Assembly: GCF_028768465.1 (NCBI RefSeq)
Contig: NZ_CP118225.1
Coordinates: 4,631,001 to 4,695,000 of the forward strand
From: Rhodopirellula sp. P2
GTDB taxonomy: Bacteria; Planctomycetota; Planctomycetia; Pirellulales; Pirellulaceae
DNA: 64,000 bases
Direction: 5' to 3'
A model generated the notes under the pieces. That model made no database searches. It saw only the letters and a program-made list of their open reading frames with translations, and had not been told where the DNA came from. Within the stretch, counting starts at the first letter, position 1, and every line of letters begins with the position of its first letter. Below, piece after piece: positions 46,375 through 56,867 of the stretch. The translations under genes were made by a program, and so were the position numbers.

Positions 46375-48948
46375 TCAGAAATCGCTGCGAGCAAAGTAGA
46401 CGCAGCTCAAGGTGAGCATCACTGCAATGAATACACCGCAGCTGATGATGGGCGTGGCGATTCCATAGCGGACCACTTCCCCCGCCTCCATGTCGCCACC
46501 ACCAACGATGAACGCCTTTTTGCCAGAGACCATCCCTGCGGTTGTGTCCCCCAATGCAAGCACCTGAGGCGTCAGCAATTCCAGCAACCCAATTCCATAC
46601 CGGTCGACTCGACGCCAAAATGATCGTTTCGGTTCAATGCTGCGAACCACATTCAGGTCAGCGGACTTCGCCTGGCTGTTGACATGAAATTCACTGACTC
46701 GGTCCACGTCATGAGCGATGACCAACTGGACCACCGATGAGTCCGGCGTGAACTCCACCATCGCTGTTTCAATCTCGTCCACCGGGAGTGTCGCGATCAC
46801 ATGCAACCGATGAGTTTCCGAATCCGGCTGATCACCTGCATTTTCGATCACGCGAAGCAGATGCCCGCTGCCCTCCGTAGTCACAACCAAAAACAGGTCC
46901 TCCGCGACAGCGTGCAGTGATAGTGGCGCGATGTCGTCGGGCCAATCGCCAACGAAGAACTCAGTCAGATCCTTCGTGTTGAACACGCGAGCCACTTCAT
47001 CACCAGTGCTGGCGATGACAAATCGGTTCGAGGCGGCCAACACGGGAGGCAAAGGCGTGTCCGAGCGAGGCAAATCCGCGGTGAGATCCCGCTGCCACAC
47101 ATTCTCTGTCGGACTGCCATCGGGCACCAACTGTTGCAATTGGCTTCCATTGAGAATCAGTAACCGCGTCGATTCACGTGCCTCCCCGCCTTTCAAATCA
47201 GTTGAGTCCAAGGGGACTGCCAGCCGAATTGGAGGACTCAGAGCCACATTTCGCGGCAGGATCGAAACGAATTCTTCCGTGGCGCCTCCTTGCATCGTCA
47301 CGAGGGTACTCAACCAGGCGCCAATGGAGTCAGCTGATTGCCCCCGCGGGGATCGGCCGTCCGGATCGCCTTCGCTGTCAGCGTCCGAATCATCCGCTTC
47401 GTCTTGGAGCTTCTTGCCAATCGACGAGAGGATGTCCTTGTTTTGAGTGATCAACAAATCCGCCGTGTTGACCGCCAAGGTCTGTCCGGATCCGGACTTC
47501 CCCGTCAATCCGATTGGAATCAAACGTTCCGTCGCGGTTGGCAATCGCAGTCCCGGTTGTGGTTTCCAATCGTTGTCGCGTGCCAACACGATCAGATCGA
47601 GCGAACCGGAGCCGAATGGATTGAATTTTCCATTGCGAATTCTTGCCGTCAGAACATGGTCGTCATCAATCGCAACGGGCCGCAACACGCGATCATTGGA
47701 CATCGCTTTGCTCTCGATCACAGGCACCCACTGCTGTTGAGCCTCGTCCATCCGGTTCAACCCGCCGCCGTTGGTGACCGCGATCAAATCCTCTCCCGCT
47801 CGAACCAGGCCGGAAATGCGTTCCGGCTGAACAATTCGAGTGTCAAACACACCCGCGATAATACTGAACACGAGGCAGATCGCGGCCAATGCTCCCGCCG
47901 CTGCAATCGAAATGATGGGGGAACGCCACTTCAATCCAGCCGGCACAGACACGCTGAAGAAAACAGCGAACAGAAACACAGCGACGGGAATGCACCACAG
48001 AATCCTGGGGTTCCAGATCTCCAGGCGCATTCCCGCGATCAGATACAGACCGATGACCAATTGAGCCACGCATAGAAACACGAAGGCACACCCCCCCACG
48101 AACTTCGCCAGCAACAAGGCCGAACGCGAGACGGGTTTGCTGAGCAACAGATGCAACGACCCGGTCTGCAACATGTCCGGAATCATGGACGCGGTAACCA
48201 GGACGCCGAGGAAGACCAGCACGAACCCGAGCAACCAGTGAACCAAGGTTGGAATCACAAATTGATTGAACAACGATTCAAACTGAGTTCGATCGATTTC
48301 AAATCCGGTTGGAAAATCCAACGTCCCATAGGTCAACAACACCGAGCGTGCACTGCGGGCCTCGAAGACCCCTGGTAAAGCGGCCTCGATCCGAAGTCTG
48401 GCCCGACGCCGAATCAGCGAATCAGACAGTTCCTCCGCCGGCTTTTCATCCAGTTCACGCAACTCGCGAAGTCGAACGGTTTCCTGCCAGGCTTCGGCGT
48501 CGTACCAGTGACGCGAATCCGAGGGCCCCTCGGCCGTTTCGCCCGACTCTGCTTCGATTTCTGGCGCGTTGGTGGCGAGTCTGAATTCTTGCTCGATCAA
48601 CTCGTTCAAGGCATCCGTCAGCATTGGCAAAGGAATCCGAACCTCGTCGCCTTCCCCCACGCGCTGAAGCTTCCGCGAAAGCTCTTCTGGCATCGAGGCC
48701 GCGATTCGTCCTAGCGGAGCATCCTTCTGATCCGGGTCGACCATGCCCTGCGCCAGCATCGCCTTCATTCGTGTCCCGTTGTAGACGTCGAAGAAGCGAA
48801 ACGTGGTGGTGTAATCTTCGCGAACGCCGATGGGAGCCAGCATGGCCAGCAGGATCCAGATGGCCAGCATCGCTGCCCACAAAACTCGCGACGCCATCGC
48901 GGCATGAAACGAATCCCAAACGACGGCGAAATAGGGTCGCCAATTCAA
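46375..48948 (-). CDS. ABC-2-like permease with very large extracytoplasmic domain
   Basis: 857 residues. The start is taken as TTG at 48948, because GGAGAG lies just before it and the reading frame further upstream is inside the ATPase gene. Helix 1 is at about 19-42, then an acidic segment to 220. Helices follow at about 230-253, 277-306, 315-337 and 343-368. A soluble domain of some 455 residues with repeated strand patterns (GEDLIAVTNGGGLNRM, HVLTARIRNGKF, FVIASTGDEVARVFN) suggests a beta-propeller, before a final helix at about 830-852. LQTGSLHLLLSKPVSRSALLLAK is the ABC-2 coupling-type loop. It is encoded right after its ATPase. The substrate is unknown. Confidence 0.82.
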   Translation of the reverse strand: MNWRPYFAVVWDSFHAAMASRVLWAAMLAIWILLAMLAPIGVREDYTTTFRFFDVYNGTRMKAMLAQGMVDPDQKDAPLGRIAASMPEELSRKLQRVGEGDEVRIPLPMLTDALNELIEQEFRLATNAPEIEAESGETAEGPSDSRHWYDAEAWQETVRLRELRELDEKPAEELSDSLIRRRARLRIEAALPGVFEARSARSVLLTYGTLDFPTGFEIDRTQFESLFNQFVIPTLVHWLLGFVLVFLGVLVTASMIPDMLQTGSLHLLLSKPVSRSALLLAKFVGGCAFVFLCVAQLVIGLYLIAGMRLEIWNPRILWCIPVAVFLFAVFFSVSVPAGLKWRSPIISIAAAGALAAICLVFSIIAGVFDTRIVQPERISGLVRAGEDLIAVTNGGGLNRMDEAQQQWVPVIESKAMSNDRVLRPVAIDDDHVLTARIRNGKFNPFGSGSLDLIVLARDNDWKPQPGLRLPTATERLIPIGLTGKSGSGQTLAVNTADLLITQNKDILSSIGKKLQDEADDSDADSEGDPDGRSPRGQSADSIGAWLSTLVTMQGGATEEFVSILPRNVALSPPIRLAVPLDSTDLKGGEARESTRLLILNGSQLQQLVPDGSPTENVWQRDLTADLPRSDTPLPPVLAASNRFVIASTGDEVARVFNTKDLTEFFVGDWPDDIAPLSLHAVAEDLFLVVTTEGSGHLLRVIENAGDQPDSETHRLHVIATLPVDEIETAMVEFTPDSSVVQLVIAHDVDRVSEFHVNSQAKSADLNVVRSIEPKRSFWRRVDRYGIGLLELLTPQVLALGDTTAGMVSGKKAFIVGGGDMEAGEVVRYGIATPIISCGVFIAVMLTLSCVYFARSDF

Positions 48949-49021
48949 TGCATCTCTCCAGCGATCGTTTTCAAAGTAGATGGTGACAGCAACGGCGGGC
49001 CAAGGAAAAAGATCATCAGCA

Positions 49022-50104
49022 TCACGGCGTCGGGTCGGCGTCACGGCCGGGCAAACCGGCTTGTTGAACCAATCGCATGAACGTGTGTTCGAGAGTGTGT
49101 CGATGCGGTTGCAGGGTGACGATCGAGCCATCCAGGCTGCGCACCACATCCACACTCGCGTCGACGTCGGCTTGTTCGTCGCAGTCCAATTGGACACGCC
49201 AAAGATCATTCGATTCCTTCGAACGGACCAACTGCCAAGCGGAATCGGTCGACACCATTGGCTGCAGATGCTCCTGCAACGTTTCCAACTTGGAACGGTC
49301 CAGTTCAATCTCCATGTGAATCGTCATCGCCGACTGGGAGACTTCCATCCCGGGACCGCTCAAGTTGTTGATCGGTCCCGACGCCAGCACGCGGCCCTTG
49401 GCCATGATCGCCAGGTGCGTGCACACCAATTCCACCTCGTGCAGAATGTGACTGTTCATCAAGATCGTTTTGCCAGCGTCTCGCAAACGTTCAATCACTT
49501 GACGCACCTCGGACCGCCCCACGGGATCCAAGCCATCGGTGGGTTCATCCAGCACCAACAGATCGGGATCGTGCATCAAGGCTTGAGCCAGTCCCAATCG
49601 CTGCAACATGCCTTTGCTGAACTGCCGCACCGGTTCGCGATCTCGACCGGCAAGTCCGACCAACTCCAACAACTCGTCGCTGCGTCGGCGGATTGTCGCG
49701 CCGTCGAGTCCACTCAGTCGACCGTAATACTTCAGTGCTGTCCGAGCAGTGTGGTGCCGATCAACTCGCAACGACTCAGGCAGATACCCGACTCGACGAC
49801 GAGCCGCTGCCGATCCGGCTGGCAAACCAAACAAACTGGCGGTTCCACCGGAGGATCGGATCACTCCCAGCAAGATTTTGATCAATGTCGTTTTGCCAGC
49901 CCCGTTGGGACCCAGCAGACCGAAGACTTGACCGGCATCCGCGTTCAGAGTGACTCCCGAGAGAGCATGCACGTGAGCGGAACGCCGCCAGCTTCCGCGA
50001 TAGGTTTTCTGCAGCCCGTTGACGGACACAATCGTTCCATCTTTCACGGGCATTTCGAGAGACGCGGCAACGCTCTCGGCTGGATCGGAGGCGAAAGAAC
50101 TCAC
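49022..50104 (-). CDS. ABC transporter ATPase (ABC-2/CcmA type)
   Basis: 360 residues. The GTG at 50104 is chosen because it overlaps the stop of the preceding gene (GTGA, 50104-50101). Walker A LLGPNGAGKTT, signature FSKGMLQRLGLAQAL, Walker B LLVLDEPTDGLDP and H-loop MNSHIL. A C-terminal extension of about 110 residues (MEIELDRSKLETLQEHL onward) follows the ATPase core. It is the partner of the permease gene that starts 73 bases downstream. Transport direction is probably export, as for other ABC-2 type proteins. Confidence 0.92.
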   Translation of the reverse strand: MSSFASDPAESVAASLEMPVKDGTIVSVNGLQKTYRGSWRRSAHVHALSGVTLNADAGQVFGLLGPNGAGKTTLIKILLGVIRSSGGTASLFGLPAGSAAARRRVGYLPESLRVDRHHTARTALKYYGRLSGLDGATIRRRSDELLELVGLAGRDREPVRQFSKGMLQRLGLAQALMHDPDLLVLDEPTDGLDPVGRSEVRQVIERLRDAGKTILMNSHILHEVELVCTHLAIMAKGRVLASGPINNLSGPGMEVSQSAMTIHMEIELDRSKLETLQEHLQPMVSTDSAWQLVRSKESNDLWRVQLDCDEQADVDASVDVVRSLDGSIVTLQPHRHTLEHTFMRLVQQAGLPGRDADPTP

Positions 50105-50547
50105 GCCAGCAGATTCTTCAGCGTCAGCAAGAACAACGTCAAAGCAGCCACCGCCATCATCGCGGCCAAGAACAAACGATTCGCTGGGTGTCGCCACGAA
50201 GGGCCGCTGACCTCGCGATCGTACAGGGAACGAAAGCCTTCGCGTTCCTGAGGGGTATCAAAAACCCCGTCTTCAACCAATTCCTGCAGCCCGAACTGGA
50301 TTTGATACTCGACGACTCCAAACACGTCTTGCCGGTGATGGCCGTCGTCAACGCCTTTGCCTTCGAAGTACCAAAGTTGGTTGCCGAACTGATTCTCGGA
50401 CTCAGCCCGGTCGTCGACACATTGCAAGCGAACGATCTCACTGGTGTCCGGGCAGAACTTTGCCTTCGCGAGCGCACGGACGCTGTCCAGACGAACCTGC
50501 TGGAGCGTTCTTTCGGAATATTGTCGTTGCTGCGTTTCGGCACGCAT
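50101..50547 (-). CDS. Hypothetical C-terminally anchored membrane protein of the ABC operon
   Basis: 148 residues. ATG at 50547 with GGAG and AGGATC upstream; a GTG eleven codons earlier lacks such a site. The soluble part has FCPDTSEIVRLQCVDDRAE and YFEGKGVDDGHHRQDVFG. The C-terminal helix (NRLFLAAMMAVAALTLFLL) anchors it in the membrane. No family recognised. Overlap with the ATPase start shows it belongs to the transporter operon, as the first gene, and may be a regulator or partner of the permease. Confidence 0.75.
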   Translation of the reverse strand: MRAETQQRQYSERTLQQVRLDSVRALAKAKFCPDTSEIVRLQCVDDRAESENQFGNQLWYFEGKGVDDGHHRQDVFGVVEYQIQFGLQELVEDGVFDTPQEREGFRSLYDREVSGPSWRHPANRLFLAAMMAVAALTLFLLTLKNLLA

Positions 50548-50923
50548 GATCCTATCTCCGCGTGGCAATGAAGAAGACACTTGGTCTTCATGAGAATCAT
50601 TATTGCCGGTTGGGCAACTGCCGTCATGGTCGGAGTCCCACTTTTGAAGAAGTTTTGACTCATTTTTGTCTTGTCACGATCTGCCACCCACCCCGCGGTG
50701 TGGCAGCCTGTCACGACCACCATCCTCACCTCGCACACCTTCGGAGGCTGGATTCGTAGACGACCGGCCCATTCCAACAGGCGTTCGGGCTTGCCCCGCC
50801 GGCCAGACACCCGTTCCCCGGATCCAATCTTTGGCAGGCTTCTTCGGTGCAACGAAGAACGCTGCTATCTTGCTGCAGAATCCTTCGCAGTTGCGGACCT
50901 GAGCGTCCCAGCTCACCGGGAAT
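50548..50923. other. Divergent intergenic region between the ABC operon and an orphan kinase
   Basis: No gene seen. It holds promoters for both directions. A Fur-box-like sequence is at 50591-50605 (listed separately). No intrinsic terminator seen. Confidence 0.5.
50591..50605. promoter_or_regulatory. Fur-box-like 7-1-7 dyad upstream of the ABC operon
   Basis: TGAGAATCATTATTG matches the 7-1-7 Fur consensus TGATAAT-n-ATTATCA at 11 of 14 positions. It lies 44 bases upstream of the small membrane protein start. A match of this quality could arise by chance. No iron or zinc gene is in the window. Confidence 0.3.
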
Positions 50924-52054
50924 GTGAAGAACCAAGTGTCTGGTTCAATTTCAACTCGCCTTGCAAAGGACACGGTCATCGTCTCGCCCATTTCGAACCG
51001 CCCGTTGACCCTGCGAACGCCCGTCACTCTGGGCGTGGTGTTGATTGTCTTGGTCGTTTTGCTGACCGCCGTTTGGATCAGCGGAACGGTTTGGGGCGCC
51101 GTCCGCAACGATTCCACCTCGGGCATGTTCTGGGTGATGCTCGGTGCCGGGGCCCCGCTCTTGATCGCGGTTCTGGCCGGAGTCATCGCTTACCTGACCC
51201 TGTCGGTCAAAGCGTTCAATTTGAATCGTCGGCAATCCAACTTCATCGACTCCGTCACCCATGAACTCAAAAGCCCGATTGCGTCGCTCAAACTGTACCT
51301 GCAAACGATGACCCGTCATGACGTCAGCGTGGAACAACAGAAGGAGTTCCACCTCATCATGCTGGAAGACGTGGAACGTTTGGACAGTCTCATCAATCAC
51401 CTCCTCGATGTCGCTCGAGTTGACCGGGGAGGCGAAGCGTACGAGGCCTGCGATTTGTCACTGGACACCGTGCTTTCCAAGTGCGCCCAAGGAGCCTGTG
51501 TGCGATACAAACTGCCTCCTGAAACAGTCCGCGTGAAATGCCCGCCCATTCTCGTGCACGCTCCCGTCATCCAAATTGAAATTCTGTTTCGCAACTTGAT
51601 CGACAACGCCATCAAATACGGTGGCTCGCCTCCCAAGGTGGAGTTGACCGCGGTCTGTGCCGCCTCGGGAGACATCACCGTTTCCGTTTTGGACAACGGC
51701 ACGGGAATCCCTGCCAACCTGCGTCGCAAAGTCTTCGGGCGATTCGTCCGCCTGGGCAGTGAACTGGAACGCAGCCAACAAGGCACCGGGTTGGGCCTGT
51801 ACCTGGTTCGCAACATCACCCACGCCATGGGTGGCCGCATCAACATCCAAGACGGTCACTGGGACGTCTCGACCGAATCCGCCGACAATTCCCAGTCGGC
51901 CACATCCGAAGCAGACACGCCCGGAACCGCCCCCCAGTCATGCCAACAGGGAACACGCATCGATGTCACGTTGCCCAATGGCAAACTGGCTGAGCCCAAG
52001 ACTCCGCCTGACTCACCACCCCCGGACGACGCACCGGACGCGGCAGAAAAGTAG
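50924..52054 (+). CDS. Orphan sensor histidine kinase with two helices
   Basis: 376 residues, GTG start at 50924. Helices at about 34-58 and 67-97 have almost no loop between them, so sensing is intramembrane or via a partner. Phosphoacceptor H113 in DSVTHELKSPIAS; ATPase boxes LFRNLIDNAIKYGG, SVLDNGTGIPANLR and GTGLGLYLVRNITHAMGG. A Pro/Glu-rich tail follows. No response regulator is adjacent. The large ATPase gene starts 184 bases downstream on the same strand. Confidence 0.9.
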   Translation: MKNQVSGSISTRLAKDTVIVSPISNRPLTLRTPVTLGVVLIVLVVLLTAVWISGTVWGAVRNDSTSGMFWVMLGAGAPLLIAVLAGVIAYLTLSVKAFNLNRRQSNFIDSVTHELKSPIASLKLYLQTMTRHDVSVEQQKEFHLIMLEDVERLDSLINHLLDVARVDRGGEAYEACDLSLDTVLSKCAQGACVRYKLPPETVRVKCPPILVHAPVIQIEILFRNLIDNAIKYGGSPPKVELTAVCAASGDITVSVLDNGTGIPANLRRKVFGRFVRLGSELERSQQGTGLGLYLVRNITHAMGGRINIQDGHWDVSTESADNSQSATSEADTPGTAPQSCQQGTRIDVTLPNGKLAEPKTPPDSPPPDDAPDAAEK

Positions 52055-52238: not shown

Positions 52239-55200
52239 ATGAAAGACTCTGCTGTTTCGCCTGCACTGCTGTTTGCTCCGGAACGCCAACGCCGTCTGCT
52301 TCATGGATTGATCCAACGCGTTGCGGCTTCCCGAGAAGAACATTCTCGATTGGTTCGCCAACAAGGCGACCAACATGCGGACATCGAACAGCGTTTGACA
52401 GACCAACTCGCTGCCGTCAAGCAGAACTGCCACACCGATCGCATCAACACGCTCAGGCAGTGGGACATCGCGCAGGAACAAATGATCGCCGCGTACGAGG
52501 TGGCGACGCTGCAGACGCGAGACCAGCTGCGACGATGCGGCGTCCGTTTCCGACGGCAGCTCGCCGAAGACGAGGCGGTGATCCATGGCAAGGTTGAGAA
52601 GCGACTGATCGCGATCAAGAACCAGTACAACGCCCGCAAGGATCAGCCGAAGAAGCTCGCCGCGAAAGAACATCATCAGCTCGACGCTGCTCTTGCGGAA
52701 TCAAACGAAGACATTGAGTGGGCTCGGGCGCTGACGCTCCGCCGACTCAACCGATTGCTCGATGTCCAAACGCCCAGCGATCTGTACGCTGAATTTGGTG
52801 AAGCCCCACCGCACAAGGTGGAAGACGCGCTGGAACTCATCCGCCGACAGAACCGTCGCTTGAAGGCCACCGTCTCTGAGATGCAAACGGGATTCGCCGC
52901 GCATGTGGTGGACGCGGTGTACTACCTGCCCTCGCTGGTCGCAGTGCTGCTGTTGATTTTTTCTGGCACCTCGATCTTGCTGAAAGCGGAACCGCTCATT
53001 CACTACTTGATCGGTTCCGTCATCGTTTCCGGTTTGATCGGGTTCACGTGCTACCTGATCTTGATGTGGCCGTTGCGGAAGATGACTCGGTCTTTGCACC
53101 CTGCGACCGAACGAATTCGCTTGGCATCGCAAGACGCTGTGCTGCAGGCCAAACGAATTTCGACAGCCGCCGCCAAGAAAACCAGCCAGGAACTGATCCT
53201 GCAACGTGACTCGCACATCAAGGAGGCTCAACAGTGGCAACAGAACCAACTCCAGGACCTCCGCGAAGACCTGGCCGCAAAACAGGTCGCCGAAGAAGCA
53301 CGGCTGAAGGACCAGTTGAAGCGAATTGAGGAACAGTTCCAAACCAGCTTCGCGGATCTTCAACAATCGATGCGTGAACGGGCAAATCAAACGGCCACCG
53401 ACATCTCCCAAAAGCTCAGCCAATCGGATGCGGCGGCGGGCCAAACCCTGCAAGCCGTGGCGGAACAGCACCGCCACACCTTGGAATCACTGGCGCAACG
53501 ATTGCAATCTGGCATGCATCGCGGGCTGATGCGAATCCTCGCTGCCAATGATTTGGTCGAGTATCGGTATCCACACTGGGACGAATTGCTTTCCAATCCT
53601 CCCCCGCAACATCCTGGCATCGATTTCCTGCCGCTGGGATCGATCCGGTTGGGAAATCGCCTGAAGCAGCAATTCGATTCGGCTCTGGGATACGACACTT
53701 CTCATCATTTGGAGAGAACCGGTGACCCCCACGACGAAGCTGACATTCTGAATCGGTTGCAAGTTCCCGACACGATGCCGATCGCAATGCACCGGAGAAA
53801 CCATTCCGGCGTGATCATCGAGGCGCCCACTGCACACATCGAGGATGCAATCAACATTGCGCATCAGATGCTCTGGCGTTTGCTCAGCGCTGCCCCACCC
53901 GGCCAAGCTCGTGTGACTCTGATTGATCCAGCTGGTCGAGGACAAAACTTCTCCAGTTTCCTCGCTTTGGCAGATCACGCCCCCAGCCTGATTCACCACC
54001 GCGTCTGGACTCAGGGCGACCAAATCACAGCTCGGATCGCAGACATCAGTCAGCATGCTGAAAACATTTTGCAGTCCTGTCTGAGGGACCAGTACAAACG
54101 CTTGGAAGACTACAACGAGGTGGCTGGTTCGCTGGCGCAACCCTACGAAGCGATCGCCGCAGTCGGATTTCCTGACGGGCTGTCTCGCGAGGCCCATTCG
54201 CACCTGGCATCACTCATCCGCAGTGGAATTCGTTGCGGTGTGTTCGTGATTCTGGTCGTGGACAACAAACACGAATGGCCGGCGGACATGCCGATGTTTG
54301 ACCATCCCAATTTGCTGCGTCTGAAGTACGGCGATGCAGGGTTGGATACCGGCGAGGAAACGGCTCGCAAAGACCCGTCGGTTGCCTTTGATGGAATCGA
54401 TCGTTCCAGTTTGAACGGCGAACCCGTGCAACCCAACGAAGATGGCATCATCCCAATCGGCAGCAAGCGTCGTGTTCGAATGTTGGATGAGGGCCTGACC
54501 GCCGGCCATTGGCGGTTGCTCAACGCGGGATTGGACGAATTCGAATTCTGGCCCGCTCCACCGCCAATGCCCCAAGACCGCTCGGCACTGATCCAGCGCA
54601 TCGGGCGACTGGCCCAGGAAGCCTCTCGCGTCATCGTGCCGTTGACCTCGTTGCTGCCCGAAGAACGCATCCCGACAGCGGATCACACCAGCACGGCCGC
54701 TGACGGTCTGAACATCGTCATTGGCAGCTCCGGGGCAGGACGGCACCGGTCACTCGATTTGGGCGAGGGTGTTCGGCAACATGTTCTGATCGCCGGTAAA
54801 ACGGGCTCGGGCAAGAGCACGCTGCTGCACAGCATCGTCACGTCCGGCGCAGCGATGTACTCCCCCGATGAATTGCAATTCTATCTGTTGGATTTCAAGA
54901 AGGGCGTTGAATTCAAGATCTACGCCGATGCCAAACTACCTCACGCTCGCGTCATTGGCATTGAAAGCGAACGCGAATTTGGACGCAGTGTCCTGCAACG
55001 ACTCGATTCAGAGATGACCACCCGAGGCGAATTGTTCCGGGCCGCGGGCGTCCAGGAACTGGGTGCCTATCGGCGAACCTGCCCTGCCAAAGTCATGCCC
55101 CGTTTGATGCTGGTCGTCGACGAATTTCAAGAGCTGTTCACCCGGGACGACACGCTGGCATCTGACTGCACCGCGCTTTTGGATCGGCTCGTTCGGCAAG

Positions 55201-56474
55201 GCCGCTCGTTTGGAATCCACGTTGTTCTCAGCAGTCAATCGTTGGCTGGTGCCAACAGTCTCCCGCGGGCCACGCTGGGACAAATGGCGGTTCGAATCGC
55301 GATGCAGTGCAGCGAAGCCGATGCCGCCTTGATCTTGTCCGATGACAACACCGCGGCTCGATTGATCTCCCGCCCTGGTGAAGCAATCTACAACGATGCC
55401 AGTGGTCTGGTCGAAGGCAACCAGCCCTTCCAAGTCGCTTACTTGGAAACCGCTGAACAAGTTCAACTTCTCAATGAAGTTGGCCAGCGAGATGAAGCCT
55501 GGAATCGGGAACTCGGCGCCGCCGTGGTTTTCGAAGGCAACCGACCAGGTCGTTTCACGGCTGAAATGGCACGCCAAGCCATCGACGCTTCACAGCCCTC
55601 TGACACGCTGGTCGGATTGCTGGGGGAAGCCGTTGAACTCGGCCCGCCCTGCGCCTTGCGATTCCAATCCAACACAGGTCGCAACGCCTTGCTGATCGGG
55701 TCGGCTCGCAATCGGCCCAGCGTCCTGAGCTGCATCATTGCGTCCGCGAAGGCTCATCGTCCAGAGCTCGCCTTGGTCTTGTTTGATGGTTCCCGAGCCG
55801 AAGAAGGTGACTCGGTCGCGCAGTGGACGCAACAGCATGATGTGGACGCACAAATCATCCGGACTCGTGACGCTGAGACCGCCATGATTCAGCTGGCTCA
55901 ATTCGTGGGCACCCGACTGGGCAAACCCACCCAGGAAGCGTCGACCACTGACGAACTTGGCACTCCCGCCCCTGCGTTCAGCCTCGATTCGACTGGCACC
56001 CTGGTTTCCGCTAAGAACCAAGCGAACGACGTTTCCCCCATTGAGAATCTGCCGCTAAGCAACGACACGCCCCTGTTGGTCGTGCTCGATGGCCTGGATC
56101 GGTTCCGCGACCTCCGTCAGTCGGAATCGATGAACTTCTCGTTGGACGCCGCCAGCCAAATCTCTGGTTGCGATGCGTTGCAAACCGTGCTTCGTGAGGG
56201 CCCCGCCGTCAACGTGTTTGTCATCGCGAGTTTGCCCTCGGCAGAGACATTGAATCGCTGGTTGCCCCGTCAAAGCCATCATGATCTGGAATTGCGTCTG
56301 GTCGGGCCGCTCAATGCCGGCGACTCTTCGCTTCTGATCGATTCCCCCGCCGCGGCCGATCTCTCTGCCGCCACGATGATTTTGTACGATGATTCCGATG
56401 GGCGAATGACAAAATTCCGGTTGTGCGACCCGCCCTCGTCAGGAGAATTGACGTCGTTGTTGGCGACAACTTGA
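52239..56474 (+). CDS. Membrane-anchored coiled-coil FtsK/SpoIIIE-type ATPase
   Basis: 1411 residues. Residues about 15-220 and 290-430 are long coiled coils (heptads rich in Gln, Arg, Glu and Ala) flanking a pair of helices at about 228-250 and 258-282. Residues about 440-800 are globular and unrecognised. The FtsK/SpoIIIE ATPase follows: Walker A G853-K-T-G-S-G-K-S, FYLLDFKKGVEFKIYA, and Walker B LMLVVDEFQELF at about 957-968 with the SSQSLAGANSLP sensor region. A second ATPase-like module (about 1140-1411) has no Lys in its P-loop position (LLIGSARNRPSV) but a Walker-B-like LLVVLDGLDRF. This layout resembles EccC/EssC-type type VII motors with inactive distal ATPases. The partner is the small gene that follows. 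Confidence 0.8.
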   Translation: MKDSAVSPALLFAPERQRRLLHGLIQRVAASREEHSRLVRQQGDQHADIEQRLTDQLAAVKQNCHTDRINTLRQWDIAQEQMIAAYEVATLQTRDQLRRCGVRFRRQLAEDEAVIHGKVEKRLIAIKNQYNARKDQPKKLAAKEHHQLDAALAESNEDIEWARALTLRRLNRLLDVQTPSDLYAEFGEAPPHKVEDALELIRRQNRRLKATVSEMQTGFAAHVVDAVYYLPSLVAVLLLIFSGTSILLKAEPLIHYLIGSVIVSGLIGFTCYLILMWPLRKMTRSLHPATERIRLASQDAVLQAKRISTAAAKKTSQELILQRDSHIKEAQQWQQNQLQDLREDLAAKQVAEEARLKDQLKRIEEQFQTSFADLQQSMRERANQTATDISQKLSQSDAAAGQTLQAVAEQHRHTLESLAQRLQSGMHRGLMRILAANDLVEYRYPHWDELLSNPPPQHPGIDFLPLGSIRLGNRLKQQFDSALGYDTSHHLERTGDPHDEADILNRLQVPDTMPIAMHRRNHSGVIIEAPTAHIEDAINIAHQMLWRLLSAAPPGQARVTLIDPAGRGQNFSSFLALADHAPSLIHHRVWTQGDQITARIADISQHAENILQSCLRDQYKRLEDYNEVAGSLAQPYEAIAAVGFPDGLSREAHSHLASLIRSGIRCGVFVILVVDNKHEWPADMPMFDHPNLLRLKYGDAGLDTGEETARKDPSVAFDGIDRSSLNGEPVQPNEDGIIPIGSKRRVRMLDEGLTAGHWRLLNAGLDEFEFWPAPPPMPQDRSALIQRIGRLAQEASRVIVPLTSLLPEERIPTADHTSTAADGLNIVIGSSGAGRHRSLDLGEGVRQHVLIAGKTGSGKSTLLHSIVTSGAAMYSPDELQFYLLDFKKGVEFKIYADAKLPHARVIGIESEREFGRSVLQRLDSEMTTRGELFRAAGVQELGAYRRTCPAKVMPRLMLVVDEFQELFTRDDTLASDCTALLDRLVRQGRSFGIHVVLSSQSLAGANSLPRATLGQMAVRIAMQCSEADAALILSDDNTAARLISRPGEAIYNDASGLVEGNQPFQVAYLETAEQVQLLNEVGQRDEAWNRELGAAVVFEGNRPGRFTAEMARQAIDASQPSDTLVGLLGEAVELGPPCALRFQSNTGRNALLIGSARNRPSVLSCIIASAKAHRPELALVLFDGSRAEEGDSVAQWTQQHDVDAQIIRTRDAETAMIQLAQFVGTRLGKPTQEASTTDELGTPAPAFSLDSTGTLVSAKNQANDVSPIENLPLSNDTPLLVVLDGLDRFRDLRQSESMNFSLDAASQISGCDALQTVLREGPAVNVFVIASLPSAETLNRWLPRQSHHDLELRLVGPLNAGDSSLLIDSPAAADLSAATMILYDDSDGRMTKFRLCDPPSSGELTSLLATT

Positions 56475-56504
56475 CTCTCCATTTTTCTCGTTCGGAATGT
56501 TCTC

Positions 56505-56867
56505 TTGGCCAAGTGTGACGAAGGCTATCGATGCGAAGTGTGCGGCGAAGATGTGATGTCGATCGTCGACAGCGATCTCTACCTTCGCTACGTCATCGGA
56601 CACCTTGATCCCGAGAAACTCCATGTTTCTCCCGAGCGACACATCCGCTGCAATCCCATTTTGGCACAGTGCATTCGCGACCAGCGAGTCCATCCGGTCA
56701 CCCTCACGGGCCCATTTGCACTCTCGGAACTTGATTCCAGCCACGCCGAAGCAATGGTGGAACTGGTCACACGTGGCTATCAACGTCTGTGGGAAATCAA
56801 TGCCGAGGACGGCGACCGAGACGTCACCGACTACCCGCTGCCCGACGTTCGCACGCGTTACCAATAG
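56505..56867 (+). CDS. Hypothetical small protein with CxxC motif
   Basis: 120 residues. TTG start at 56505 with GGAA eight bases upstream; a later ATG would cut off the conserved-looking N-terminus (CDEGYRCEVCGEDVMSIV). The CxxC and a nearby Cys could bind zinc. GHLDPEKLHVSPERHIRCNP and a helical C-terminal half follow. No family recognised. It begins 30 bases after the large ATPase on the same strand, so it is the natural partner candidate. Confidence 0.65.
   Translation: MAKCDEGYRCEVCGEDVMSIVDSDLYLRYVIGHLDPEKLHVSPERHIRCNPILAQCIRDQRVHPVTLTGPFALSELDSSHAEAMVELVTRGYQRLWEINAEDGDRDVTDYPLPDVRTRYQ

What the first reader, a model, noticed from the sequence alone, without database searches (positions are those of the whole stretch)
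52239..56867. Giant coiled-coil FtsK/SpoIIIE motor with an inactive second ATPase and a small CxxC partner
The sequence shows a 1411-residue protein with two long coiled coils around a helix pair, one intact FtsK-type ATPase (Walker A at 853-860) and a distal ATPase-like module whose P-loop lacks the Lys. Degenerate distal ATPases are known in EccC/EssC type VII secretion motors. No FHA domain, WXG100 protein or other type VII gene is present. A 120-residue CxxC protein follows 30 bases downstream. This could be a secretion, DNA-translocation or envelope-remodelling motor not yet described in planctomycetes.
Basis: partly seen in the sequence, partly recalled or inferred. Interest (0 to 1): 0.65.

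Follow-up and report, generated by a model that had tools for sequence, protein, structure and literature searches.

The report
Planctomycete WXG100-linked secretion-type motor
This giant protein is a membrane-anchored relative of the ATPase motor of type VII secretion systems; its small WXG100-family partner proteins are encoded far away in the same genome, and the little cysteine protein next door is most likely not part of it.

Summary
In detail: window 52239-56474 encodes 1411 aa with long helices around a membrane hairpin, one intact FtsK ATPase (Walker A 853-860) and a distal ATPase-like module without a P-loop. The model of 436-1411 matches EccC best, as DUF-like / active / inactive. 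The CxxC neighbour is no general partner: it occurs with or without the ATPase and is adjacent in 2 of 74 genomes that have both. The real associates are a WXG100 protein, a probable second WXG100-like protein and a two-helix protein. In many relatives they lie directly upstream; in the window's genome they lie at three other chromosomal places. ATPase and WXG100 occur together in 29 of 40 relatives (never one alone), 83 of 149 family and 57 of 392 phylum genomes (5 and 7 exceptions). Best reading: coupling ATPase of a type VII-like module. The kind is known: Zhang 2012 mentions planctomycetes, and CoCoNuT and Helicobacter modules are similar. New here, as far as searched: the membrane anchor, the chromosomal four-gene set, and its dispersal in Rhodopirellula. 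Secretion itself is inferred.

The parts
52239..56474 (+). EccC/EssC-like FtsK-superfamily ATPase, 1411 aa
52239..52898 (+). N-terminal long-helix / coiled-coil-like region, residues 1-220 (37 K/R, 32 D/E)
   Evidence: sequence; coiled coil inferred, not predicted by a dedicated tool
52926..52982 (+). predicted membrane segment 1, residues 230-248
   Evidence: hydropathy
53007..53063 (+). predicted membrane segment 2, residues 257-275
   Evidence: hydropathy
53103..53438 (+). second long-helix / coiled-coil-like region, residues 289-400 (112 residues without P or G)
53544..54626 (+). degenerate ATPase-like module resembling the EccC/YukB DUF domain, residues 436-796
   Evidence: ESX-3 6umm Z 14.5, ESX-5 7npt Z 14.5, YukB 9qks Z 13.8
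54627..55529 (+). active FtsK ATPase module, residues 797-1097
   Evidence: FtsK 6t8b Z 24.2; EccCb1-D2 9jv8 Z 21.8
54795..54821 (+). Walker A GKTGSGKST, residues 853-861
55104..55124 (+). Walker B, ending in D961-E962
55530..56471 (+). distal ATPase-like module without a P-loop, residues 1098-1411, resembling D3 of EccC/EssC
56505..56867 (+). 120-aa CxxC protein: adjacent in part of the genus only, judged NOT part of the system

Best explanation
It is the coupling ATPase of a type VII-secretion-like module. Shown here by computation: an EccC-like order of modules (DUF-like, active ATPase, inactive ATPase) behind a membrane hairpin; strict conservation of the catalytic motifs of the middle ATPase and absence of a P-loop from the other two; tight co-occurrence with a WXG100 protein, a probable second WXG100-like protein and a two-helix protein, which stand in line upstream of it in many planctomycetes. 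Inferred: the protein forms a hexamer on the cytoplasmic membrane; the long helices on either side of the hairpin, both on the cytosolic side, make a stalk; the DUF-like and distal modules bind and gate, and the middle ATPase does the work; the substrates or adaptors are helical hairpins of the WXG100 type, as a pair of the two small proteins or as homodimers, with the two-helix protein as chaperone or co-substrate; ATP hydrolysis pushes them through the membrane. In Rhodopirellula the operon has been broken up and the four genes work from four places. I give about 0.7 to 'motor that works with these WXG100 proteins' and about 0.5 to 'it really secretes them'.
For: Whole-model Foldseek best match EccC 4nh0 (E 1.8e-26, 956 columns), then EccC/EssC, ahead of FtsK (1.7e-11); per-module matches to EccC DUF, FtsK/EccCb1-D2 and EssC D3. 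NCBIfam matches to EccCa, EccCb and EssC at 3.8e-36, 4.8e-28 and 5e-27. The own-genome WXG100 protein scores 43.0 bits against a Pfam cut-off of 27.3. Co-occurrence: of 40 relatives the full-length ATPase is in 29, the WXG100 protein in the same 29, the 80-aa protein in the same 29, the two-helix protein in 28 of them, none of these in the other 11; 149 family genomes: both 83, ATPase only 4, WXG100 only 1, neither 61; 392 phylum genomes: 57, 3, 4, 328. ATPase and WXG100 lie within 6 kb in 40 of 57 and 41 of 83 genomes with both. Upstream on the same strand in 49 loci: 80-aa gene 29, two-helix gene 17, WXG100 gene 16 (plus 1 downstream). ATPase and WXG100 distances correlate, r=0.83, 0 of 2000 permutations, 23 genomes (expected too if both simply follow the species tree).
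Against: No secretion evidence of any kind. The curated EccC/EssC cut-offs are not reached (125.1 against 509.15, 97.8 against 346.55, 94 against 778.4 bits). One ATPase module fewer than the four stated for EccC/EssC. No EsaB/YukD gene found in this genome, and that family does not follow the module. No conserved membrane partner seen beside it. One WXG100 match per genome in 29 of 29, and no larger effector with that domain at E<=0.001 in this genome. The DUF resemblance rests on a predicted model (pLDDT 75.9, pTM 0.58); a sequence profile of that region finds nothing credible in the PDB. The 80-aa protein is below the Pfam cut-off (19.9 and 18.6 bits in two members, no match in two others), and its best PDB profile hits are unrelated coiled coils. 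Co-occurrence tests ignore shared ancestry.
Confidence: 0.7

Rival explanations
1. A conflict or stress module that uses the same motor and WXG100 proteins inside the cell, in the manner of Ter-, TerY-P- and CoCoNuT-linked relatives: the ATPase acts on nucleic acid or proteins during phage attack and the small proteins are adaptors.
For: The nearest plasmid relatives sit in such surroundings: Caballeronia plasmid with VWA, WXG100, FtsK, CARF, PP2C, kinase and DUF2357 genes; Rhodococcus plasmid ATPase with an N-terminal TerD domain beside TerD genes. Bell 2024 (PMC11090510, passages seen) describes such ATPases: three domains, only the central one active, N-terminal coiled coil, two WXG100 proteins; the authors themselves think secretion likely but by a different mechanism.
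Against: The planctomycete protein has a membrane hairpin (42 of 47 rows); the three plasmid relatives examined do not. The recurrent neighbours of the non-Rhodopirellula loci are only the three helical families plus a HEAT gene in 10 loci (neighbours were not annotated one by one). One WXG100 match in each of 29 genomes and correlated divergence suggest a settled function.
Confidence: 0.2
2. A DNA translocase (FtsK/SpoIIIE-type) for chromosome segregation or conjugation.
For: The active module matches FtsK motor structures (Z 24.2) and Pfam FtsK_SpoIIIE.
Against: The best whole-model match is EccC, not FtsK. Another FtsK-family ORF (951-aa frame) is present in the same genome, and further, weaker FtsK-type matches in many of the 40 relatives. 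No match in 62 of 149 Pirellulaceae. Follows WXG100 genes.
Confidence: 0.07
3. One reading: a motor working with the CxxC protein downstream.
For: 30-base spacing on the same strand in the window; the same downstream neighbour in 6 of 49 loci (L001, L074, L075, L076, L100, window), all close to R. baltica/europaea.
Against: CxxC gene independent of the ATPase (p=0.63), within 10 kb of it in 2 of 74 genomes that have both (56 of the 74 have the two on different contigs, so a few cases at contig ends could be missed).
Confidence: 0.03

Closest known systems
EccC / EssC (TsxC), ATPase of type VII secretion systems
   Same: Membrane hairpin, DUF-like module, tandem FtsK modules, degenerate distal module, WXG100 protein in the genome
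   Different: One ATPase module fewer; a long helical region also before the hairpin; no FHA match; no EsaB/YukD found in this genome; below curated cut-offs; partners dispersed in Rhodopirellula
Solo WXG plus three-domain FtsK ATPase (Zhang 2012, PMC3482391, table note 6: 'mobile versions of T7SS', planctomycetes named)
   Same: Three FtsK-type domains, only the middle one active; one WXG100-profile match per genome in 29 of 29 relatives
   Different: Here with two further conserved small helical proteins, and dispersed over the chromosome in the window's genus; whether it moves was not tested beyond the distance correlation
[quoted passage not shown]
   Same: Three modules with central one active, N-terminal coiled coil, two WXG100-type proteins, a separate coiled-coil protein
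   Different: That paper says its ATPases lack transmembrane segments; the planctomycete ones mostly have a hairpin. The two-helix proteins here are 162-286 aa and two of them gave no nuclease match in Pfam
Helicobacter pylori HP0062 / HP0066
   Same: HP0062 is the best solved-structure match of the WXG100 profile (3fx7, E 9.9e-12) and has WRD in place of WXG (PMC3397514, passage), like most planctomycete members; PMC4978471 (section 17 read) calls WxG plus FtsK a minimal type VII set
   Different: HP0066 was not compared here; its length and membrane topology were not examined

Membership tests
Type VII secretion system (T7SSa-j) | EccC/EssC-type ATPase with DUF-like and tandem FtsK modules | tested here: met
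   Foldseek and VIA-align matches to EccC/EssC, module by module; predicted model
Type VII secretion system (T7SSa-j) | four C-terminal NTPase modules (as stated in PMC11217815, passage) | tested here: not met
   three modules in residues 436-1411
Type VII secretion system (T7SSa-j) | curated EccC/EssC profile cut-offs | tested here: not met
   125.1 against 509.15, 97.8 against 346.55, 94 against 778.4 bits
Type VII secretion system (T7SSa-j) | WXG100 protein in the same genome | tested here: met
   PF06013 43.0 bits over the cut-off 27.3 for the protein at G000 C1:7134272-7134541
Type VII secretion system (T7SSa-j) | EsaB/YukD ubiquitin-like protein (in most subtypes) | tested here: not met
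   PF08817 in 7 of 40 genomes, not in G000, also in G015 and G024, which lack the ATPase; the Bacillus subtilis control rings
Type VII secretion system (T7SSa-j) | EccB/D/E, MycP or EsaA/EssA/EssB membrane partners | not tested
   no search made for these families
Type VII secretion system (T7SSa-j) | WXG100 proteins secreted in an ATPase-dependent way | not testable with these tools
   needs the organism
Three-domain EssC-like ATPase plus WXG100 module (Zhang 2012; Bell 2024) | three FtsK-type modules, only the middle one with a P-loop | tested here: met
   one G-x4-G-K-[ST] per protein, at 853, in 47 of 47; module folds from the window model
Three-domain EssC-like ATPase plus WXG100 module (Zhang 2012; Bell 2024) | two WXG100-type proteins, one atypical | tested here: inconclusive
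   one clear WXG100; the second is below the Pfam cut-off, related to the first by profiles (E 2e-5 to 2e-4; hhalign 57%, E 1e-4)
Three-domain EssC-like ATPase plus WXG100 module (Zhang 2012; Bell 2024) | no transmembrane segment (CoCoNuT members) | tested here: not met
   two or more segments in 42 of 47 rows, one in 4, none in 1
Three-domain EssC-like ATPase plus WXG100 module (Zhang 2012; Bell 2024) | location in TerY-P/CoCoNuT islands (CoCoNuT members) | tested here: inconclusive
   recurrent neighbours are the three helical families and, in 10 loci, a HEAT gene; neighbours not annotated one by one
FtsK/SpoIIIE DNA translocase | FtsK motor module | tested here: met
   PF01580 99.1 bits
FtsK/SpoIIIE DNA translocase | DNA-reading gamma domain at the C-terminus | tested here: inconclusive
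   no gamma-domain match among the Pfam hits; the C-terminus is modelled as an ATPase-like module; no dedicated test

The most novel reading that the evidence does not exclude
Planctomycetes, which have two membranes (established knowledge), carry their own settled type VII-like protein secretion system: a membrane-anchored three-module ATPase, two WXG100-type proteins and a long two-helix protein, inherited together; in Rhodopirellula it functions with its four genes spread over the genome, so neighbourhood-based surveys cannot see it.
Probability: 0.4. Interest if true: 0.7.

Novelty: new variant of a known kind. Interest (0 to 1): 0.5.

Why it matters
Type VII secretion is studied mainly in Gram-positive bacteria and mycobacteria (established knowledge). 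The 2024 subtype survey of which I saw the abstract and passages covers two phyla, and the word planctomycetes does not occur in its text (PMC11217815). A settled, membrane-anchored version with a short parts list in planctomycetes would give a simple system in which to ask what the ATPase and WXG100 proteins do without the usual membrane partners, and whether 'mobile' Ter and CoCoNuT cassettes descend from it or the reverse. It also shows that a dispersed system is missed when only the neighbours of the ATPase are read.

Tried and rejected
CxxC partner: rejected as a general rule. EsaB/YukD as a further part: does not follow the module. Upstream histidine kinase (50924-52054): the same family stands upstream only in 6 of 49 loci, those near R. 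baltica, so not taken as linked. FlgM-like gene in front of the two-helix gene: in 2 of 4 loci looked at, not taken as linked. Fold search with the two-helix protein: generic coiled coils, best E 7.6e-3 and Z 12.0; no family assigned. Profile of residues 440-790 against PDB sequences: best E 0.85, nothing credible. WXG100 profile against the two-helix profile: 4.8%. PADLOC: partial matches to the ATPase core, best SspH 7.6e-28 at 847-1040, then mad8 3.5e-20; not taken as membership. Phage collection: 220 records, the 8 listed match the ATPase core only. Plasmid collection: 484 records, none covering 80% of the query; three were opened. Literature: searches; among the listings I saw no paper on the planctomycete module beyond the Zhang 2012 table note, in an open-access library that lacks many journals. 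Anantharaman 2012 (cited in Bell 2024) and Sutcliffe 2011 (recalled; cited in PMC3935865) were not read. PMC3935865 (passages) found WXG100 proteins almost only in Actinobacteria and Firmicutes, with a filter that required W-X-G, which the planctomycete W-R-D proteins would fail.

Rows left out or kept: the truncated loci L016 and L017 (of 49) were dropped; L021 did not enter the ATPase family because its ORF runs off the contig. In some searches weak or partial hits were counted as hits: G465 (ATPase, 2.6e-20), G511 (WXG100, 7.3e-4), G123 and G152 (WXG100, partial, about 1e-8). The exceptions to co-occurrence (12 genomes in the two sets) are drafts of 61-98% completeness in 130-1090 contigs. 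The 80-aa family has 63 hits in 392 phylum genomes, 59 of them among the 60 ATPase genomes, but for G277 the hit lies on the WXG100 gene itself, and G383 is a weak partial hit.
Full report
What is in the window. The ORF at 52239-56474 encodes 1411 aa and is followed after 30 bases by a 120-aa ORF with a TTG start. The window lies in a 7.29-Mb single-contig genome, position 4,631,001-4,695,000; the closest named relative of the ATPase among the loci returned is from Rhodopirellula europaea (83% identity), so I take the organism to be a Rhodopirellula (inference). Walker A is at 853-860 as stated. Across 47 aligned homologues (46 planctomycete, 1 Ktedonobacteria) the motif G-x4-G-K-[ST] occurs once per protein and always at that place; Walker B DEF is conserved; no row has a P-loop in the distal module. 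A hydropathy scan gives two membrane segments at 230-248 and 257-275 with eight residues between them, found as two or more segments in 42 of 47 rows, one in 4 and none in 1. Long stretches poor in helix breakers lie on both sides.

What the ATPase resembles. Pfam's main match is FtsK_SpoIIIE, with NACHT and AAA_22 just over their cut-offs on the same P-loop; NCBIfam sees EccCa, EccCb and EssC far below their curated cut-offs; the best PDB sequence match is 4nh0, which the fold search names as EccC of Thermomonospora curvata. A model of residues 436-1411 from 16 aligned sequences (pLDDT 75.9, pTM 0.58) has 4nh0 as its best Foldseek match, E 1.8e-26 over 956 columns, then other EccC and EssC structures, with FtsK motors weaker at 1.7e-11. 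The overall superposition is poor (rmsd about 25), which I put down to flexible links between modules, so the modules count: 436-796 matches the DUF region of EccC in ESX-3 (6umm, Z 14.5, 232 residues, rmsd 3.7), ESX-5 (7npt, Z 14.5) and YukB (9qks, Z 13.8); 797-1097 matches FtsK (Z 24.2) and EccCb1-D2 (Z 21.8); about 1097-1401 matches chains listed as 'ATPase' (6jd5, Z 20.0) and D3 of EssC (6tv1, Z 18.0).

The CxxC neighbour. It is conserved, in 129 of 149 Pirellulaceae genomes, but independently of the ATPase: 74 of 87 genomes with the ATPase and 55 of 62 without (p=0.63). In the 74 genomes with both, the two lie within 10 kb in 2 (G000 and G003), on one contig but far apart in 16, and on different contigs in 56. 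Among 49 loci with flanks it follows the ATPase in 6, all near R. baltica/europaea (L001 and G006 are probably the same record). I take it as a bystander.

The real associates. An all-against-all comparison of the ORFs around 49 homologous loci (recount) gave three recurrent same-strand neighbours upstream of the ATPase: a family of about 80 aa (29 loci), one of 162-286 aa (17 loci) and one of about 90 aa (16 loci, and downstream in the Ktedonobacteria locus L022). The 90-aa family is WXG100 by Pfam: four of four members tested are above the cut-off, and the member from the window's own genome scores 43.0 bits against 27.3. Its motif is W-x-D (invariant in 9 of 9 aligned rows); Helicobacter HP0062, its best solved-structure match (3fx7, E 9.9e-12, ahead of EsxB 3e-7 and EsxA 1e-5), has WRD according to PMC3397514 (passage). 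The 80-aa family is probably a second WXG100-type protein: its profile finds 90-aa members at 2e-5 to 2e-4 and hhalign gives 57% probability and E 1e-4; but of four members scanned with Pfam two gave 19.9 and 18.6 bits, under the cut-off, and two gave nothing, and its best PDB hits are unrelated coiled coils. The third family is modelled, from five sequences, as two antiparallel helices of about 75 residues without a specific structural match.

Co-occurrence. In 40 relatives the full-length ATPase is in 29, the WXG100 protein in the same 29, the 80-aa protein in the same 29, the two-helix protein in 28 of these, and none in the other 11, which have only FtsK-core matches or none. In 149 family genomes ATPase 87, WXG100 84, both 83, neither 61. 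In 392 phylum genomes ATPase 60, WXG100 61, both 57, neither 328; the 80-aa family is in 63, 59 of them among the 60. The 12 exceptions are draft assemblies of 61-98% completeness. Fisher p-values (1e-35, 8e-60) ignore shared ancestry; two controls, the CxxC gene and YukD, show no such link. ATPase and WXG100 lie within 6 kb in 41 of 83 and 40 of 57 genomes.

Dispersal in the window's genus. In the window's genome the WXG100 gene is at 7,134,272-7,134,541 (-), the 80-aa gene at about 2,286,596-2,286,847 (+) right behind a 514-aa HEAT-repeat gene, and the two-helix gene at about 2,788,020-2,788,508 (+). In all 13 genomes of the genus searched, ATPase, WXG100 gene and 80-aa gene lie on different contigs or megabases apart by the listed coordinates. 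In ten other loci, mostly labelled Rubripirellula or Rhodopirellula sp., the same HEAT gene (58-60% identical over nine full-length copies) and the 80-aa gene stand in front of the ATPase, so the arrangement in the window's genus is most simply a broken-up operon. ATPase and WXG100 distances still correlate over 23 genomes including six where the genes are apart (r=0.83, 0 of 2000 permutations), which fits joint inheritance but would also follow if each gene simply tracks the species tree.

What is known. [quoted passage not shown] Bell 2024 (PMC11090510, passages) describes EssC-like ATPases in Type III-A CoCoNuT loci with three modules, only the central one active, an N-terminal coiled coil, two WXG100 proteins and a coiled-coil nuclease, but without transmembrane segments. 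PMC4978471 (section 17 read) calls WxG plus FtsK a minimal type VII set in Helicobacter. Garrett 2024 (PMC11217815, abstract and passages) defines T7SSc-j in Gram-positives. Three plasmid relatives opened here: Caballeronia with VWA/CARF/PP2C/kinase/DUF2357 genes, Rhodococcus with TerD, Deinococcus with transposases and helicases; all three match the 440-790 profile (1.5e-32, 2e-32, 2.6e-20) and lack the membrane hairpin. So the kind is known; this is a membrane-anchored planctomycete variant with a consistent four-gene set.

Mechanism. I favour an EccC-like hexameric motor on the cytoplasmic membrane that recognises helical-hairpin proteins with its inactive modules and drives them with the middle ATPase. 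That the motor works with the WXG100 proteins is well supported by genomics; that it secretes them is inferred from homology; hexamer formation, stalk, dimerisation and direction are inferred. The main rival is a non-secretory conflict module; a DNA translocase is unlikely. How cargo would pass the outer membrane is open.

Noticed in passing
L121:8539-9276 (G000 C1 about 7134538-7135275, minus strand): A TPR-repeat gene overlaps the start of the WXG100 gene by four bases; a similar ORF is at the WXG100 locus in 4 of 5 other genomes examined. It may be a further part of the system.
   Followed up: partly
L122:6045-7589 (G000 C1 about 2285044-2286588): A 514-aa HEAT-repeat protein sits directly before the 80-aa gene in the window's genus and before it and the ATPase in ten other loci, so it may belong to the module.
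   Followed up: partly
L137:6704-7024: A FlgM-like anti-sigma factor gene (label recalled, from its motif) overlaps the start of the two-helix gene in G000 and G003 but was not found in two other genomes looked at.
   Followed up: partly
G048 C3 about 4.9-8.4 kb and G162 C837 about 9.6-13.2 kb: Two Pirellulaceae genomes carry a second, divergent ATPase hit with its own nearby WXG100 hit, perhaps a mobile form of the module.
   Followed up: no
L121:7254-8288 and L122:7803-9046: Runs of near-identical repeated ORFs lie just beside both the WXG100 gene and the 80-aa gene in the window's genome; repeats may have helped to break up the operon.
   Followed up: no
window 46375-52054: An ABC-type ATPase, a multi-pass membrane protein (both labels recalled from sequence) and a histidine kinase (Pfam) lie upstream; the kinase family is upstream of the ATPase in 6 of 49 loci.
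   Followed up: no
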